Source: a virus. From it: a stretch of 25,768 nt of DNA. The notes under the pieces were generated by a model. That model did not search any database and was not told the DNA's origin. It saw only the letters and a list, made by a program, of their open reading frames with translations. Position numbers and translations under genes: made by a program. Positions 8,581-21,798 of the stretch are shown in pieces. Within the stretch, counting starts at the first letter, position 1. Each line of letters opens with the position of its first letter. The stretch is from positions 1-25,768 of IMG/VR virus record IMGVR_UViG_3300029954_000077. One strand, 5' to 3'.

Positions 8581-8603
8581 AAAAAACCGGCGCGTGGCCG
8601 GTT
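8581..8603 (-). terminator. Intrinsic terminator at the end of the first rha gene
   Basis: AACCGGC (8585-8591), loop of five, GCCGGTT (8597-8603), followed by a T6 tract on the minus strand. The stem overlaps the TAA stop of the rha gene, so it belongs to that cassette. Confidence 0.8.
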
Positions 8604-9126
8604 AGTTGATGAGTAGTGAAGGTTGCATCTGATCAAGGAGCAGATTCATCTCGCCGAGTATTTCCGGCTTAACGTCTTGCCATTTACGCATCTCGCGCGC
8701 GGCACCACTGACTTTCCCCTTGCGATCCTTGTATTCAAGCTCCTTGCGCAAGTATTGGAATTGGATTCCGTCGCGCTGATTCTTGATGTACGCGGCCATG
8801 GCATTGAACGCTTTGATGTAGGCTACCTTGAACGCCAGAGCCTTCTTACCTGTAAATCCCATAGCTAGAAGTGCAAAGCCGTCGCGCGTGATGCAATATG
8901 CTGGATCAAGACGCACTGCGCCGTTACCAATGTCGATCTCAGTTTGCATCAATGCGAAATAGTCGCCATGCTCTATATCGAGGTCAACCACCAATTCACG
9001 GATACGCCTCATCACCACGTAATGGGTCTTTCCAAAAACAGCGGCAACCTTGCGCGAGTCGGTTGATAGCTGCTCACCATCTGCAGCGATGAAATCGAGG
9101 AAATTTAAAACTGGAACTTGATGCAT
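8602..9126 (-). CDS. Rha family phage regulatory protein (copy in tail region)
   Basis: A 174-residue Rha-type protein. Two family blocks are visible: TDSRKVAAVFGKTHYVVMRR (about 22-41), matching the SREVAxxFGKxHxxVxRxI pattern of the N-terminal DNA-binding part, and DGFALLAMGFTGKKALAFKV (about 83-102) followed by AYIKAFNAM. The C-terminus is helical and charged and ends QPSLLIN. Rha proteins are known as phage regulators linked to the lysis-lysogeny decision and to host factor dependence; the molecular target is not known. ATG is seven bases from AGGGAG. It is flanked by terminators and preceded by a structured leader shared with the second rha gene, so it looks like an independent cassette inserted between head and tail genes. 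Confidence 0.85.
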   Translation of the reverse strand: MHQVPVLNFLDFIAADGEQLSTDSRKVAAVFGKTHYVVMRRIRELVVDLDIEHGDYFALMQTEIDIGNGAVRLDPAYCITRDGFALLAMGFTGKKALAFKVAYIKAFNAMAAYIKNQRDGIQFQYLRKELEYKDRKGKVSGAAREMRKWQDVKPEILGEMNLLLDQMQPSLLIN

Positions 9127-18560: not shown

Positions 18561-19076
18561 TTAGTGCGCGAGGAGGCTGGGCTGTAACTGCCCTTCGAGC
18601 AATCCGCGCTCTTCGCGCAGGCTCGGCAATTCCTTCTTGCGCTTGAGCATCAGATGCGAGCCGAACGAGGCGCGAACCTGCGAACTCACCTCTTTCGAGA
18701 TCAACGCCTGCATTTGCGCCCATAGATCAGCGCTTTGGTTGCGCAGTTGACCGGCCATGTCATTGAAGGCGGCGATATACGCCTCCTTGAGCTCGGCTGC
18801 TTTGGTGCCAGTGAAGCCCATTGCGGCGAACATGAATCCGTCTTTCGTCATCGTGTAGGCCGGCTCTTGGCGCGTTGCACCCTTGGGTCCGCGCACATCG
18901 ATCATCGTCAACGCAAAATTGCGCTCACGAAAACCGGTGCTGCATTCCATGTTTTTGACGGCGCGGAGGATGTCCGAGTGCCGCTTTCCGAAGTGCTTGG
19001 CTACCTTGCGCGAGTATGTGATCAGCTCATCGCCGGCCAGTGCTACCAGGTCGCTCATGCTTATCAGATCATTCAT
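18561..19076 (-). CDS. Rha family phage regulatory protein (copy near terminase)
   Basis: A 171-residue Rha protein. The N-terminal motif is TYSRKVAKHFGKRHSDILRA (about 20-39) and the second block is DGFMFAAMGFTGTKAAELKE followed by AYIAAFNDMAG. The C-terminal third is helical and basic (LKRKKELPSLREERGLL) and ends QPSLLAH, similar to the QPSLLIN end of the copy at 8602-9126. The two proteins are divergent paralogs, not recent duplicates. ATG is six bases after AGGGG. It is preceded by a structured leader and a terminator like the other copy, and followed by the DnaA-box-like gap and terS. Role in phage development is inferred from the family. Confidence 0.87.
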   Translation of the reverse strand: MNDLISMSDLVALAGDELITYSRKVAKHFGKRHSDILRAVKNMECSTGFRERNFALTMIDVRGPKGATRQEPAYTMTKDGFMFAAMGFTGTKAAELKEAYIAAFNDMAGQLRNQSADLWAQMQALISKEVSSQVRASFGSHLMLKRKKELPSLREERGLLEGQLQPSLLAH

Positions 19077-19167: not shown

Positions 19168-19197
19168 AAAAAGGGCGGCACCCGAAGGAACCGCCCT
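19168..19197 (-). terminator. Intrinsic terminator upstream of rha copy 2
   Basis: AGGGCGG (19172-19178) pairs with CCGCCCT (19191-19197), with TTTTT after it on the minus strand. It would stop minus-strand transcription coming from the tRNA and antirepressor region before the rha leader. Confidence 0.75.
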
Positions 19198-19277
19198 GCA
19201 CATGTAAAAAATCCCACTATCGGAATTCCGACCATGGGCAAGTCAGCCTTGCGACTGAGGAGGAGACTCTTTAAATA

Positions 19278-19293
19278 TAATCAAAAATGATTA
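19278..19293 (+). promoter_or_regulatory. Candidate HicB operator palindrome
   Basis: TAATCA, four A bases, TGATTA form a perfect inverted repeat eight bases upstream of the -35 box of the hicAB promoter. HicB antitoxins with a DNA-binding domain usually repress their own promoter, so this is a candidate site; it is not proven. Confidence 0.4.
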
Positions 19294-19301
19294 CAAATAG
19301 C

Positions 19302-19330
19302 TTGATGATGCAAACATTTTTGGTTACACT
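19302..19330 (+). promoter_or_regulatory. hicAB promoter
   Basis: TTGATG (19302-19307), a spacer of exactly 17 bases and TACACT (19325-19330) form a good sigma70-type promoter, about 35 bases before the HicA start codon. Confidence 0.65.
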
Positions 19331-19364
19331 GTACTTACTGAATCAAACAACGAAAGGAGGTGCG

Positions 19365-19538
19365 GTGAAGCAGAAAGAGTTTGTACGGTGGCTCGCAGAA
19401 CAAGGGGCGACATTCAAGGAAGGCAGCAACCACTTGAAGGTCTATCTGAACGGCAAGCAAACAGTGATACCGAGACATGCTGGCGAGATGAAAACTGGCA
19501 CAGTCAACGGAATCAAAAAACAACTCAACCTAAAGTGA
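19365..19538 (+). CDS. hicA: HicA toxin, mRNA interferase
   Basis: A 57-residue HicA protein starting at GTG 19365, which follows a strong AAAGGAGG ribosome site; the longer frame upstream crosses the promoter and is not used. The sequence KQKEFVRWLAEQGATFKEGS then NHLKVYL is the compact double-stranded-RNA-binding-like fold of HicA, with His23 in GSNH at the catalytic position, and the IPRHAGEMKTGTVNGIKKQL ending is typical. It cleaves mRNA when free of HicB. Toxin first, antitoxin second is the usual hicAB order. It is on the plus strand, opposite to the phage genes, with its own promoter, so it can be expressed in the lysogen. Confidence 0.92.
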   Translation: MKQKEFVRWLAEQGATFKEGSNHLKVYLNGKQTVIPRHAGEMKTGTVNGIKKQLNLK

Positions 19539-19612
19539 GGATGCCCCGAAAGGGGCTATCCCCGCAACAGCTTCACCGCATCGATTACCTGATAGCAGAT
19601 AAAGGATTAACT

Positions 19613-20032
19613 ATGAAATACCCTGCACATTTTGAGCCCGACACCAAAGATGGCGGCTTTGTCATTACCTTCCGCGATATCCCAGAGGCAATTACTCAGG
19701 GCGATACTGAGGAAGAGGCACTAGCAATGGCCGCCGATGCACTTCTGGCGTCCATGGATTTCTACTTTGAAGACAGCCGCCCTGTTCCGCCGCCATCCAA
19801 GGCAAAGCGCGGCGAGCGTCTTATCTCACTTCCTGCCAGCGTCTCTAGCAAAGTCTTGCTGCTCAATGAGATGCTGGCGCAGAAAGTAACGCCAAGTGAA
19901 CTTGCCCGGCGTCTTGATACTACGCGCCAGGAAGTCAATCGCCTGATCGACCTGGGCCACGCGACAAAGGTTGACCGCATCGAAGAAGCGCTAGGCGCAC
20001 TCGGCAAGAGTCTGGAGCTGTCACTAGCTTGA
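19613..20032 (+). CDS. hicB: HicB antitoxin with C-terminal helix-turn-helix
   Basis: A 139-residue HicB protein from the ATG at 19613, six bases after AAAGGA. The N-terminal half (MKYPAHFEPDTKDGGFVITF, RDIPEAITQGDTEEEALAMA) is the partial RNase H-like fold that binds HicA. The C-terminal part (LLLNEMLAQKVTPSELARRL then DTTRQEVNRLIDLGHATKVD) is an Xre-type helix-turn-helix, so it can bind DNA and autorepress. The spacing of 74 bases from hicA is wider than in many pairs. Its 3' end stops four bases before the encoded CCA end of the tRNA-like gene on the other strand. Confidence 0.92.
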   Translation: MKYPAHFEPDTKDGGFVITFRDIPEAITQGDTEEEALAMAADALLASMDFYFEDSRPVPPPSKAKRGERLISLPASVSSKVLLLNEMLAQKVTPSELARRLDTTRQEVNRLIDLGHATKVDRIEEALGALGKSLELSLA

Positions 20033-20035
20033 TTC

Positions 20036-20109
20036 TGGGGCATCTGCGCAAAATCGAATCGCAGTCATAAGATTGGAAGGCAGCGGCTCTACCATTGAGC
20101 TACAAACGC
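20036..20109 (-). tRNA. tRNA-Gly(TCC)-like gene, degenerate anticodon stem
   Basis: The minus strand folds as a 74-base tRNA with an encoded CCA. The acceptor pairs fully (GCGTTTG with CAGATGC, two wobbles), the D stem is GCTC/GAGC, and the T arm is TGCGA/TTGCG with loop TTCGATT. The anticodon loop CTTCCAA gives TCC (Gly). The anticodon stem, GCTGC against TCTTA, has only one normal pair, so it is probably a decaying or altered tRNA. The discriminator is C rather than the U usual for bacterial tRNA-Gly. It starts two bases after a terminator. Confidence 0.65.
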
Positions 20110-20203
20110 AGAAAAGCCCCGGCCAGTTAAGGTGCGGGGCTTACGACATTACACAGTTCTATCTGAAAAGTTGCAATTCTCTGGGCGTGCGAAACCACCC
20201 ATG
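20110..20203 (-). ncRNA. Candidate small RNA between promoter and terminator
   Basis: The promoter at 20210-20238 would start a transcript near 20203, and an intrinsic terminator at 20112-20142 ends it about 90 bases later. Only a 17-codon frame without a ribosome site lies in between. This could be a regulatory RNA, or the leader of a transcript that reads through into the tRNA-like gene. Confidence 0.35.
20112..20142 (-). terminator. Intrinsic terminator just upstream of the tRNA-like gene
   Basis: AAGCCCCG (20114-20121) pairs with CGGGGCTT (20135-20142) through a 13-base loop; the minus strand continues with TT to make a four-T run after the stem. Confidence 0.65.
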
Positions 20204-20209
20204 GAGATA

Positions 20210-20238
20210 AATATACACTGTGTTTACGCACAGTGCAA
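20210..20238 (-). promoter_or_regulatory. Minus-strand promoter with embedded palindromic operator
   Basis: On the minus strand TTGCAC (20238-20233), exactly 17 bases, then TATATT (20215-20210). The spacer and part of the -35 box are covered by a perfect palindrome, CACTGTG, TTTACG, CACAGTG (20216-20235), so a dimeric repressor bound there would block RNA polymerase. The -35 box is imperfect. No similar palindrome was noticed elsewhere in the window. Confidence 0.5.
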
Positions 20239-20282: not shown

Positions 20283-20978
20283 TTATGTTGCCGTCATTTT
20301 TCCTTCAAGGCTTTTGATTGCTTCGGTAGCACTCTCTCTGACCATTTGAAGATAGCTTGCGCACGATTCTATTTCCTCATAATAGTGATGAGCCAATGCG
20401 TTGCCGAGAGTTGCTTTTGCGATAATGTCACTCGCAAGCTCACTGCTTAGCTGACGTGGGGCGCCATACTCGCACCGGTACGCAATCGCCCTGATAAGAT
20501 ATTGCTTTGACAACCTAAATGATTCAAGTGCCATCTCGAACGATTTATTCTCCAAGGCTTGATTCAGGTCATCAGTAAGTGGCAAGGTTGGCTTGGAACC
20601 TCCGGACAAAAGAAGCGCCTGCACATCCACATATTTTTCTGCGTCAAACTTTCCGGTCTTGCGAATCGTTGGCAGAACATCGGATGTCACCCACTTGCGG
20701 AACCGATGTGGCAGGGTTCCCGGTTTGACGGCATCGCGGCAGCGCAGGACCAGCGTGTACATGCCGGACTCGCTGATGATAGACAGGTTCTGCTTTCCGC
20801 CAAGGGTGTCGGTTAAACCTACACCCTTTTCATCGTCGTCTAGCGACCTCAGTGAGTCTCTGGAATTTACAAGATTCAATGCCTTGCACACATCAACAGC
20901 AACAAACCACGGCTCGCCGTCGATCAGAACAATGCGGACCTTGTGATTCTCAAATGTGAAAATTGTAGGGTCGCTCAT
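20283..20978 (-). CDS. BRO-N domain antirepressor
   Basis: A 231-residue protein from the ATG at 20978; the longer upstream frame is noncoding leader. Residues about 5-105 are a BRO-N domain: VRIVLIDGEPWFVAVDVCKA, LDDDEKGVGLTDTLGGKQNL, the ISESGMYTLVLRCRD block and FRKWVTSDVLPTIRKTGKF. The C-terminal half is helical (KSFEMALESFRLSKQYLIRA) and is not one of the common antirepressor C-termini that I recognise. BRO-N proteins act as phage antirepressors that inactivate the lysogeny repressor. Its start overlaps the stop of a 49-residue ORF (ATGA), and the region upstream folds as a C4-like antisense RNA, so production is probably controlled at the level of translation. Confidence 0.85.
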   Translation of the reverse strand: MSDPTIFTFENHKVRIVLIDGEPWFVAVDVCKALNLVNSRDSLRSLDDDEKGVGLTDTLGGKQNLSIISESGMYTLVLRCRDAVKPGTLPHRFRKWVTSDVLPTIRKTGKFDAEKYVDVQALLLSGGSKPTLPLTDDLNQALENKSFEMALESFRLSKQYLIRAIAYRCEYGAPRQLSSELASDIIAKATLGNALAHHYYEEIESCASYLQMVRESATEAIKSLEGKMTAT

Positions 20979-21124
20979 GCTGCAACTCCGATTTTGGCGG
21001 GGGTGGCGAGAGGCGCAGAAACACTGCAAAGCCGTGCAATCAAGGCTTCGTAAATTTCCTGTGCTGCGGCGAGATTTGGGACGGGTTGGCGCGGTGCGGG
21101 CGTGGGGATGCAAGTAGCAACCAT
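20975..21124 (-). CDS. 49-residue leader ORF coupled to the antirepressor
   Basis: This small frame starts at ATG 21124, six bases after a perfect AGGAG (21135-21131), and its TGA overlaps the antirepressor ATG (ATGA). It reads MVATCIPTPAPRQPVPNLAA then AQEIYEALIARLCSVSAPLA and TPAKIGVAA. The strong ribosome site here, against a weaker GGAG for the antirepressor, suggests the small ORF drives antirepressor translation. In phages P1 and P7 a small ORF (orfx/icd) precedes ant in the same way and is the real target of C4 RNA. No function of the peptide itself is recognised. Confidence 0.65.
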   Translation of the reverse strand: MVATCIPTPAPRQPVPNLAAAQEIYEALIARLCSVSAPLATPAKIGVAA

Positions 21125-21130
21125 GACTGA

Positions 21131-21173
21131 CTCCTGTTTGAGACTTAGAGAAGCCCACCGGAAGCGATTTCAA
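21131..21173 (-). promoter_or_regulatory. Predicted antisense target site over the leader-ORF ribosome site
   Basis: The minus strand has TTGAAATC (21173-21166) and AAACAG (21139-21134), the second overlapping the AGGAG ribosome site. Both are exact complements of GATTTCAA and CTGTTT in the upstream C4-like domain. The order of the two blocks is right for antiparallel pairing. Confidence 0.55.
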
Positions 21174-21185
21174 GCGCAAAGGGGT

Positions 21186-21254
21186 GGGGTTAAGGTGTTG
21201 AAATCTCGTAAACAGCCGAGCGGATAGCCATTTCTGGCAATCCCACCTTTCCCC
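21186..21254 (-). ncRNA. C4-like antisense RNA domain in antirepressor leader
   Basis: A 69-base minus-strand segment folds neatly. The closing stem is GGGG-A-AAGGTG (21254-21244) with CACCTT-AA-CCCC (21197-21186). Inside are hairpin one, GGATTGCCA/TGGCTATCC with loop GAAA and one T-T mismatch (21243-21222), and hairpin two, CTCG/CGAG with loop GCTGTTTA (21220-21205), then ATTTCAA up to the closing stem. Nearly every base is used. Hairpin two's loop and the GATTTCAA segment are complementary to the leader-ORF target and to a second copy upstream (21309-21329). C4 RNA of P1/P7 is similar in size, position and logic. I could not compare to the C4 family model. Confidence 0.6.
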
Positions 21255-21308
21255 ATTGAGGAAACTGCAGGCGTAAAAAATGTCACAAAACTATCGGGGT
21301 GACATTCC

Positions 21309-21329
21309 GCTGTTTACTCGTGATTTCAA
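21309..21329 (-). promoter_or_regulatory. Upstream decoy copy of the antisense target
   Basis: Near the 5' end of the transcript the minus strand reads TTGAAATC, ACGA, GTAAACAGC. It can pair 8 plus 9 bases with the C4-like domain around a small internal loop, repeating the target blocks found at the ribosome site. P1 has a similar upstream pair of complementary blocks. Confidence 0.5.
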
Positions 21330-21341
21330 GCACTTGAGCGG

Positions 21342-21370
21342 AATATAGCCCTGGATTTACCAAATGTCAA
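21342..21370 (-). promoter_or_regulatory. Strong sigma70-type promoter of the antirepressor operon
   Basis: Minus strand: perfect TTGACA (21370-21365), exactly 17 bases, and TATATT (21347-21342). Start is expected near 21335, giving a leader of about 210 bases before the 49-residue ORF. With such a strong promoter, control after initiation would be needed in a lysogen. Confidence 0.75.
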
Positions 21371-21392
21371 ATCAGTCAAAATGAGCCGAAAT

Positions 21393-21414
21393 TAGCCGGT
21401 GCGTGCAGCGGCTA
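21393..21414 (-). terminator. Hairpin after the late-regulator candidate gene (weak terminator)
   Basis: TAGCCG (21393-21398) and CGGCTA (21409-21414) form a six-base stem with a 10-base loop, only 13 bases after the stop of the upstream gene. The following minus-strand sequence has broken T runs, so termination would be weak. Confidence 0.4.
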
Positions 21415-21426
21415 GGCACAACATGT

Positions 21427-21798
21427 TCAAAATGTGGCGCAATCAAAATAATTTCGCGTATCTGAGTGCAGCTTCATTTTGGTAACAAGTATCGCCTCAG
21501 CCTCCGCCAATTCCTTGAGGTAATCGGCATTTGGAAACCGCCACACTGTGAGTACGCTGCACTTTTTTTGAATCGCCCACCGGTGAATGGGCTTTAGATC
21601 AAATATCATCACATGCACCGCCTCAGCTGTTCGAATGTCCGCTTTGACGTATGGCAAATCCTCGTCATCGCATCCGCCTGCACGGTCCCGGTGCGTCATC
21701 GCAAGATCATCGCGGCGTGACCAGCGTACCCAAATATCAAGCACATCCCCTAACGGATCGGGTTCGCGCTCAAATACTGGTATTTCACGTGCTTTCAT
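21427..21798 (-). CDS. Small protein in the antiterminator-Q position
   Basis: A 123-residue protein ending the replication block. It contains DVLDIWVRWSRRDDLAMTHR, a stretch with clustered Cys/Asp (AGGCDDEDLPY), and a helical C-terminal half (IHRWAIQKKCSVLTVWRFPN then ADYLKELAEAEAILVTKMKL). The W-R-W start and the helix pattern at the end resemble the sigma-region-4-like layout of small phage Q-type antitermination proteins, and the place just before the late region fits, as do the many terminators inside the late operon. I cannot confirm the family. ATG follows AAGGGCAAGCG and overlaps the upstream stop (ATGA). Confidence 0.5.
   Translation of the reverse strand: MKAREIPVFEREPDPLGDVLDIWVRWSRRDDLAMTHRDRAGGCDDEDLPYVKADIRTAEAVHVMIFDLKPIHRWAIQKKCSVLTVWRFPNADYLKELAEAEAILVTKMKLHSDTRNYFDCATF

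What the first reader, a model, noticed from the sequence alone, without database searches (positions are those of the whole stretch)
20975..21370. C4-like self-targeting antisense RNA controlling a BRO-N antirepressor
Seen directly: a consensus promoter (TTGACA, 17 bases, TATATT), a 69-base domain with closing stem and two hairpins, and two short blocks in it (CTGTTT and GATTTCAA) that are exact complements of AAACAG and TTGAAATC twice in the same transcript. One copy lies near the 5' end; the other lies over the AGGAG site of a 49-residue ORF whose stop overlaps the antirepressor ATG. Known: in P1 and P7, C4 RNA is cut from the same transcript as its target, pairs with the ribosome site of a small ORF, and so blocks coupled ant translation. 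Inference: the same logic here, with a BRO-N protein and an apparently different small ORF. Competing pairs (GGTGGG or CCCACC blocks at 21154-21159, 21183-21188 and 21242-21247) suggest a switch.
Basis: partly seen in the sequence, partly recalled or inferred. Interest (0 to 1): 0.8.

Follow-up and report, generated by a model that had tools for sequence, protein, structure and literature searches.

The report
C4-like antisense RNA guarding phage antirepressor
A phage gene that would wake the virus from dormancy is preceded by a small RNA that appears to block its translation; relatives of this circuit show that sRNA-Xcc1, an RNA long treated as a bacterial virulence factor, probably does the same job in many phages.

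Summary
On the minus strand at 20975-21370 lie a near-consensus promoter, an IsrK-like 5' block with a terminator, a stem-plus-two-hairpin RNA domain, and two short antisense blocks. Each antisense block is complementary to a copy 5' of the domain and to a second copy just upstream of, or touching, the Shine-Dalgarno site of a 49-codon ORF whose stop overlaps the BRO-N start. The spacing matches authentic C4 loci before BRO-N genes. The domain is not Rfam C4: RF01695 finds nothing. Its closest kin are leaders carrying sRNA-Xcc1 (RF02221). A model of their 5' element, built without the window, finds it at 45 bits, E 5e-13, and target and antisense change together between window and kin. The domain itself scores only 17.9 bits with RF02221; hairpin 1 has diverged.

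sRNA-Xcc1 as a family behaves like C4: in 44 of 56 phage loci its loop matches the Shine-Dalgarno region of its own downstream gene, against 6.5% for swapped pairs (0 of 10,000 permutations). Those genes are mostly antirepressors; four in bacterial genomes are SymE toxins. I found no paper making this link. Repression is inferred; no RNA data were available.

The parts
21342..21370 (-). sigma-70-type promoter, TTGACA - 17 - TATATT
   Evidence: the -10 region and the following CCGCT are conserved in L018
21322..21329 (-). b1, first target block TTGAAATC
   Evidence: differs in parallel with b2 and b' in L018 and L060
21310..21315 (-). a1, first target block AAACAG
   Evidence: changes together with a' and a2 in L018
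21259..21317 (-). 5' element of the sRNA-Xcc1-type leader: a1 followed by hairpin AATGTCAC/GTGACATT and T6 (intrinsic-terminator-like, 21275-21306)
   Evidence: model R2, built from 43 other loci: 45.2 bits, E 5.1e-13; covarying stem in those loci
21192..21249 (-). antisense RNA domain: closing stem AAGGUG/CACCUU, hairpin 1, hairpin 2, single-stranded b'
   Evidence: fold; RF02221 17.9 bits, below the 53-bit cut-off
21222..21243 (-). hairpin 1 (GAAA tetraloop); lacks the sRNA-Xcc1 core AATACAANACCCGNAAGGGGAAT
21205..21220 (-). hairpin 2 with a' = CTGTTT (21210-21215) in its loop
21198..21205 (-). b' = GATTTCAA, between hairpin 2 and the closing stem
21154..21188 (-). hairpin CCCACC/GGTGGG that shows b2 (TTGAAATC, 21166-21173) in its loop; CCCACC can instead pair with GGTGGG at 21242-21247
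   Evidence: C4 loci have a TCACCACC/GGTGGTGA counterpart
21131..21139 (-). a2 = AAACAG (21134-21139) overlapping the Shine-Dalgarno sequence AGGAG (21131-21135) of the small ORF
   Evidence: same placement in most sRNA-Xcc1 loci
20975..21124 (-). 49-codon leader ORF; its TGA overlaps the BRO-N ATG (ATGA)
   Evidence: no Pfam or convincing tblastn match
20283..20978 (-). BRO-N antirepressor, 231 aa
   Evidence: PF02498 E 1e-19; phrog_130 anti-repressor Ant E 9e-46

Best explanation
The leader is a self-targeting antisense circuit that holds a BRO-N antirepressor off in the lysogen. One transcript starts at the 21370-21342 promoter. Some transcripts end at the terminator at about 21275 and give a short RNA carrying target copy a1b1. 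Readthrough transcripts contain the antisense domain, which is cut out or acts in place. Its hairpin-2 loop (a') and the adjacent single strand (b') pair with a2b2 and so block the ribosome site of the 49-codon ORF. Because the stop of that ORF overlaps the BRO-N start, BRO-N translation is shut too. The short a1b1 RNA is a better partner for a'b' than the real target is (predicted -24.0 against -15.7 kcal/mol), so it can act as a decoy that releases the antirepressor. Shown from sequence: anatomy, homology of the leader, coordinated change of antisense and targets. Inferred: processing, repression, coupling, decoy action.
For: The pattern and geometry (14/100/10/32/34 nt between successive blocks) match C4 loci before BRO-N genes, e.g. 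16/102/15/33/29 in L006. The 5' element matches the sRNA-Xcc1 leader model at E 5e-13, in the range of true sRNA-Xcc1 leaders (mostly 40-62 bits) and above C4 leaders (at most 27 bits). Against L018 (BRO-N 56% identical), a1, a' and a2 all show the same C/G exchange, and b1, b' and b2 differ together. Family-wide, the sRNA-Xcc1 loop fits its own gene's Shine-Dalgarno window in 44 of 56 loci against 6.5% for swapped pairs, 0 of 10,000 permutations; both blocks also fit both the upstream and downstream copies, 0 of 5000, repeated in bacterial genomes. Downstream genes are antirepressors. Coupled small ORFs before antirepressors recur, e.g. L107, L153 and L025. In the published Gifsy-1 case (PMC4825925), IsrK has its own terminator and orf45 overlaps anrP by AUGA.
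Against: No expression, processing or reporter data. The antisense domain itself falls far below both Rfam cut-offs (17.9 of 53 bits for RF02221). The a2b2 duplex alone is not stronger than shuffled targets (358 of 2000 as good). BRO-N has its own GGAG upstream of its start, so strict coupling is not certain. Only near-identical copies (L002, L003) share this exact hairpin 1.
Confidence: 0.85

Rival explanations
1. The leader works only in cis, as an attenuator: a'b' pairs with a1b1 in the same transcript and controls termination or opening of the ribosome site, with no free antisense RNA.
For: The full-length minimum-energy fold pairs a1b1 with a'b'; a terminator-like hairpin lies between them.
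Against: P1/P7 C4 and C4-like RNAs of Acinetobacter are processed, abundant RNAs (PMC5320573), and sRNA-Xcc1 is seen as a discrete ~88-nt RNA in Xanthomonas (PMC2996969). The second target copy at the Shine-Dalgarno site would then have no purpose.
Confidence: 0.1
2. The 5' terminated RNA is mainly an activator that remodels the mRNA, as published for IsrK of Gifsy-1, rather than the antisense domain being mainly a repressor. The two may be views of one circuit.
For: Same order of parts as isrK-orf45-anrP, where IsrK in trans raises anrP translation about 140-fold (PMC4825925). Rfam isrK sits just 5' of C4 in BRO-N leaders.
Against: It does not explain why a' and b' are the blocks that vary together with the Shine-Dalgarno region in dozens of loci. 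It is compatible with a decoy role of the 5' RNA.
Confidence: 0.25
3. It is a diverged member of the Rfam C4 lineage proper (RF01695).
For: Same spacing and same overall fold; C4 precedes many BRO-N genes.
Against: RF01695 gives nothing at E<=10. The 5' element matches sRNA-Xcc1 leaders far better than C4 leaders, and the nearest BRO-N proteins by tree path carry sRNA-Xcc1.
Confidence: 0.07
4. Chance complementarity in an ordinary leader.
For: About 1.3% of simulated one-strand windows contain such a pattern somewhere.
Against: Location before an antirepressor, 0 of 255 shuffled leaders, homologous leader at E 5e-13, and parallel changes in all three copies.
Confidence: 0.02

Closest known systems
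sRNA-Xcc1 (RF02221) leaders upstream of phage antirepressors (e.g. L018; Bordetella phage vB_BaM-IFTN1)
   Same: Homologous 5' element with terminator, same order of blocks, same target over the Shine-Dalgarno site, same kind of downstream gene.
   Different: Hairpin 1 of the window lacks the AATACAANACCCGNAAGGGGAAT core; the window's target belongs to a small coupled ORF, whereas in L018 and IFTN1 it belongs to the antirepressor itself.
C4 antisense RNA of P1/P7 (RF01695)
   Same: Closing stem with two hairpins, antisense loop a' and single-stranded b', double target, small ORF coupled to the antirepressor, equal spacing.
   Different: No RF01695 match; BRO-N protein; 5' element of the sRNA-Xcc1 type.
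isrK-orf45-anrP of Salmonella prophage Gifsy-1 (RF01394)
   Same: Terminated 5' RNA, readthrough mRNA, small ORF whose stop overlaps the antirepressor start.
   Different: No RF01394 match in the window; the published model stresses activation by IsrK and, in the passages read here, does not mention C4.
sar antisense RNA of P22-like phages (RF00262; seen in L062)
   Same: Antisense RNA against an antirepressor in the same functional slot.
   Different: Encoded on the opposite strand, not a self-targeting transcript.

Membership tests
C4 antisense RNA (RF01695) | matches the covariance model | tested here: not met
   no match at E<=10 in the window record; none at E<=5 in 20700-21700
C4 antisense RNA (RF01695) | closing stem with two hairpins; a' in the loop of hairpin 2, b' single-stranded | tested here: met
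C4 antisense RNA (RF01695) | double target a1b1/a2b2, the second at the ribosome site of a small ORF coupled to the antirepressor | tested here: met
C4 antisense RNA (RF01695) | cut out of the transcript by RNase P | not testable with these tools
   a GGT lies in the 5' arm of the closing stem, as at reported cleavage sites, but this proves nothing
sRNA-Xcc1 (RF02221) | matches the covariance model at the gathering score | tested here: not met
   17.9 of 53 bits; no match in single-family search
sRNA-Xcc1-type antirepressor leader (defined here) | 5' element with terminator matches a model built from other members | tested here: met
   45.2 bits, E 5.1e-13
sRNA-Xcc1-type antirepressor leader (defined here) | hairpin-2 loop complementary to own downstream Shine-Dalgarno region and to an upstream copy | tested here: met
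isrK (RF01394) | matches the covariance model | tested here: not met
BRO-N antirepressor | Bro-N domain and antirepressor family profile | tested here: met

The most novel reading that the evidence does not exclude
sRNA-Xcc1 (RF02221), filed as an orphan, virulence-associated sRNA of Xanthomonas, Xylella and Aeromonas, is a second large family of C4-type self-targeting antisense RNAs. It sets phage immunity by repressing antirepressors of several unrelated folds (Bro-N, KilA-N, Rha, AntA, ORF6N, P22-AR), and it has been reused as an antitoxin-like RNA before SymE. The window carries a further, diverged form that current covariance models miss.
Probability: 0.85. Interest if true: 0.72.

Novelty: new variant of a known kind. 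Interest (0 to 1): 0.66.

Why it matters
It gives a testable function to an RNA family that recent papers read as a virulence factor or as an RNA delivered to plants. Multiple copies in one genome (15 in Aeromonas salmonicida J223, seven in Xylella Temecula1 according to those papers) would then more likely count prophage or toxin modules than virulence regulators. It also implies that the variable loop is a predicted immunity specificity: two prophages with the same loop should silence each other's antirepressor.

Tried and rejected
Rfam on the window: only a tRNA-like hit at gathering level. Distant blastn of the leader in phage records: nothing. Genome-contig scan with BRO-N: no close relative. 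Neighbouring-gene relatives (L308-L313) lack the antirepressor module. Model R1 of the antisense domain got only 8 pairs from RNAalifold and was not used. The invariant core in alignment A4 is partly produced by the pattern search that collected it. For the small ORF, searches used a wrong frame (20976-21122); repeated correctly. The two Rha genes of the window have no double-target leader. SymE-type query in plasmids: no match.

Full report
What is there. The window is a 25.8-kb virus record with a contractile-tail structural module on the minus strand (tail sheath, portal and terminase profiles). At 20283-20978 (-) it encodes a 231-residue BRO-N protein (PF02498; phrog_130 anti-repressor Ant). 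One point was missed: between the first target copy and the antisense domain lies AATGTCAC-N12-GTGACATT-T run, an intrinsic-terminator-like hairpin.

More than chance? A strict version of the six-block pattern occurs once in the window and in 13 of 1000 simulated one-strand windows, so the pattern alone is not decisive. In the leaders of BRO-N relatives a relaxed detector is positive in 22 of 85 real sequences and in 0 of 255 shuffled ones. The distances between blocks in the window (14, 100, 10, 32 and 34 nt) are almost those of authentic C4 loci upstream of BRO-N genes (16, 102, 15, 33 and 29 nt in L006).

Which family? BRO-N relatives carry one of two RNAs in this place: C4 (RF01695), usually with isrK (RF01394) just before it, or sRNA-Xcc1 (RF02221). 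The window domain gives no C4 match and only 17.9 bits with RF02221 (cut-off 53), so by the models it is a member of neither. Its 5' part settles the kinship. I built a model of the element (a1, hairpin, T run) from 43 sRNA-Xcc1 loci without the window or L018. It has a covarying stem (34 cells changed on both sides, 13.9 expected by shuffling, slid controls 2-8). It finds window 21317-21259 with 45.2 bits, E 5e-13. True sRNA-Xcc1 leaders before BRO-N mostly score 40-62 bits (L236 30, L202 24) and C4 leaders at most 27. In a BRO-N tree the window lies nearest to sRNA-Xcc1-controlled proteins, without strong support.

Coordinated change. L018 (BRO-N 56% identical) has a2 CTCAAAGAGGAG where the window has CTCAAACAGGAG. 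Its a1 shows the same C/G difference and its antisense loop the matching G/C difference. b1, b2 and b' also differ in step (TTGAAATC against GTAGAAAC). Bordetella phage IFTN1 has a third set, AAGCAG/CTGCTT and GTAAGAAC/GTTCTTA. This is what an antisense-target pair maintained by selection should show.

The family follows the same rule. I collected phage contigs with the sRNA-Xcc1 core. In 86 non-redundant loci both antisense blocks fit both their own upstream and their own downstream regions better than those of other loci, in 0 of 5000 permutations each. With start codons chosen without looking at complementarity, the loop has at least 6 contiguous pairs with its own Shine-Dalgarno window in 44 of 56 loci, against 6.5% for windows of other loci, 0 of 10,000 permutations. 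In 63 of 71 loci the match ends 7-12 nt before the start codon. The downstream proteins match Bro-N, KilA-N, P22_AR, Rha, AntA and ORF6N profiles. A separate sample of 369 whole genomes gives 22 with the RNA and the same complementarity; in two of these genomes four loci precede a SymE-type protein (PF08845), the loop matching the Shine-Dalgarno region in some. Bordetella phages IFTN1 and IFTN3 carry sRNA-Xcc1 and C4 respectively before the antirepressor gene at the same place in their genomes, so the two RNAs look interchangeable.

The window as a variant. It differs from typical members in two ways: hairpin 1 has lost the conserved core, and the target belongs to a small coupled ORF. The second feature recurs in L107, L153, L087 and L110. 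L025 combines both features: RF02221 29.1 bits, loop CCTTGTG against CACAAGGAG, and a small ORF running into BRO-N.

Mechanism. Shown from sequence: parts, homology, co-change. Inferred: the domain is released or acts in place, covers the ribosome site of the small ORF, and keeps the antirepressor off by coupling. The terminated 5' RNA is predicted to bind the antisense blocks better (-24.0 kcal/mol, 1 of 2000 shuffles as good) than the real target does (-15.7, 358 of 2000), which fits a decoy that releases the brake. In Gifsy-1, the terminated IsrK RNA was shown to raise translation of the coupled anrP antirepressor (PMC4825925).

Literature. sRNA-Xcc1 was found by cDNA cloning and Northern blot as an 88-nt RNA of Xanthomonas (PMC2996969) and is cited as controlled by HrpG/HrpX and as a virulence candidate (PMC12189769; PMC8780938). 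A 2025 paper notes it upstream of symE in integron cassettes (PMC12444791), and another lists it in Xylella near C4 and isrK. None of the passages read here links it to C4 or to antirepressors, and full-text searches for the combinations found no such statement. The 2011 functional paper itself is not held and could not be read.

Verdict. For the window this is a new variant of a known kind. The wider result, a function for sRNA-Xcc1, is the more interesting part.

Noticed in passing
L276, L278, L298, L305 (whole-genome loci): sRNA-Xcc1 stands directly before SymE-type toxin genes (PF08845), in L278 with its loop complementary to the Shine-Dalgarno region; suggests an antitoxin-like use of the same RNA.
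   Followed up: partly
window 18561-19076 and 8602-9126 (-): Two Rha-family regulators (PF09669). A weak match (11.1 bits, E 0.11) to the leader element lies at 19190-19238, before the first one, but no double-target pattern was found.
   Followed up: partly
window 20150-20230 (-) compared with L308-L310: By eye, TGGGYGRTTTCGCACGYCCAGAGAA follows the upstream gene directly in relatives but lies after BRO-N in the window, as if the whole antirepressor module had been inserted there.
   Followed up: partly
window 20039-20109 (-): Rfam tRNA match (33.4 bits) that ARAGORN does not accept; perhaps a tRNA remnant or an attachment-site copy.
   Followed up: no
window 19287-20032 (+): Small protein matching phrog_353 (toxin), followed by an ORF that looks like a HicB-type antitoxin, on the strand opposite to the phage operon; probably a HicAB pair.
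   Followed up: no
L310 3267-3327, L313 3149-3212: Sub-threshold matches to Betaproteobacteria_toxic_sRNA (RF02278) after a gene homologous to window 21427-21798; L310 also has a weak match to the leader model in the same place (15 bits).
   Followed up: no
L073, L076, L094, L095, L126, L149, L188: A group with the sRNA-Xcc1-like core and loop ...GCATGCGG..., before a small conserved protein MNPLCTVLPDLP..., different from antirepressors.
   Followed up: no
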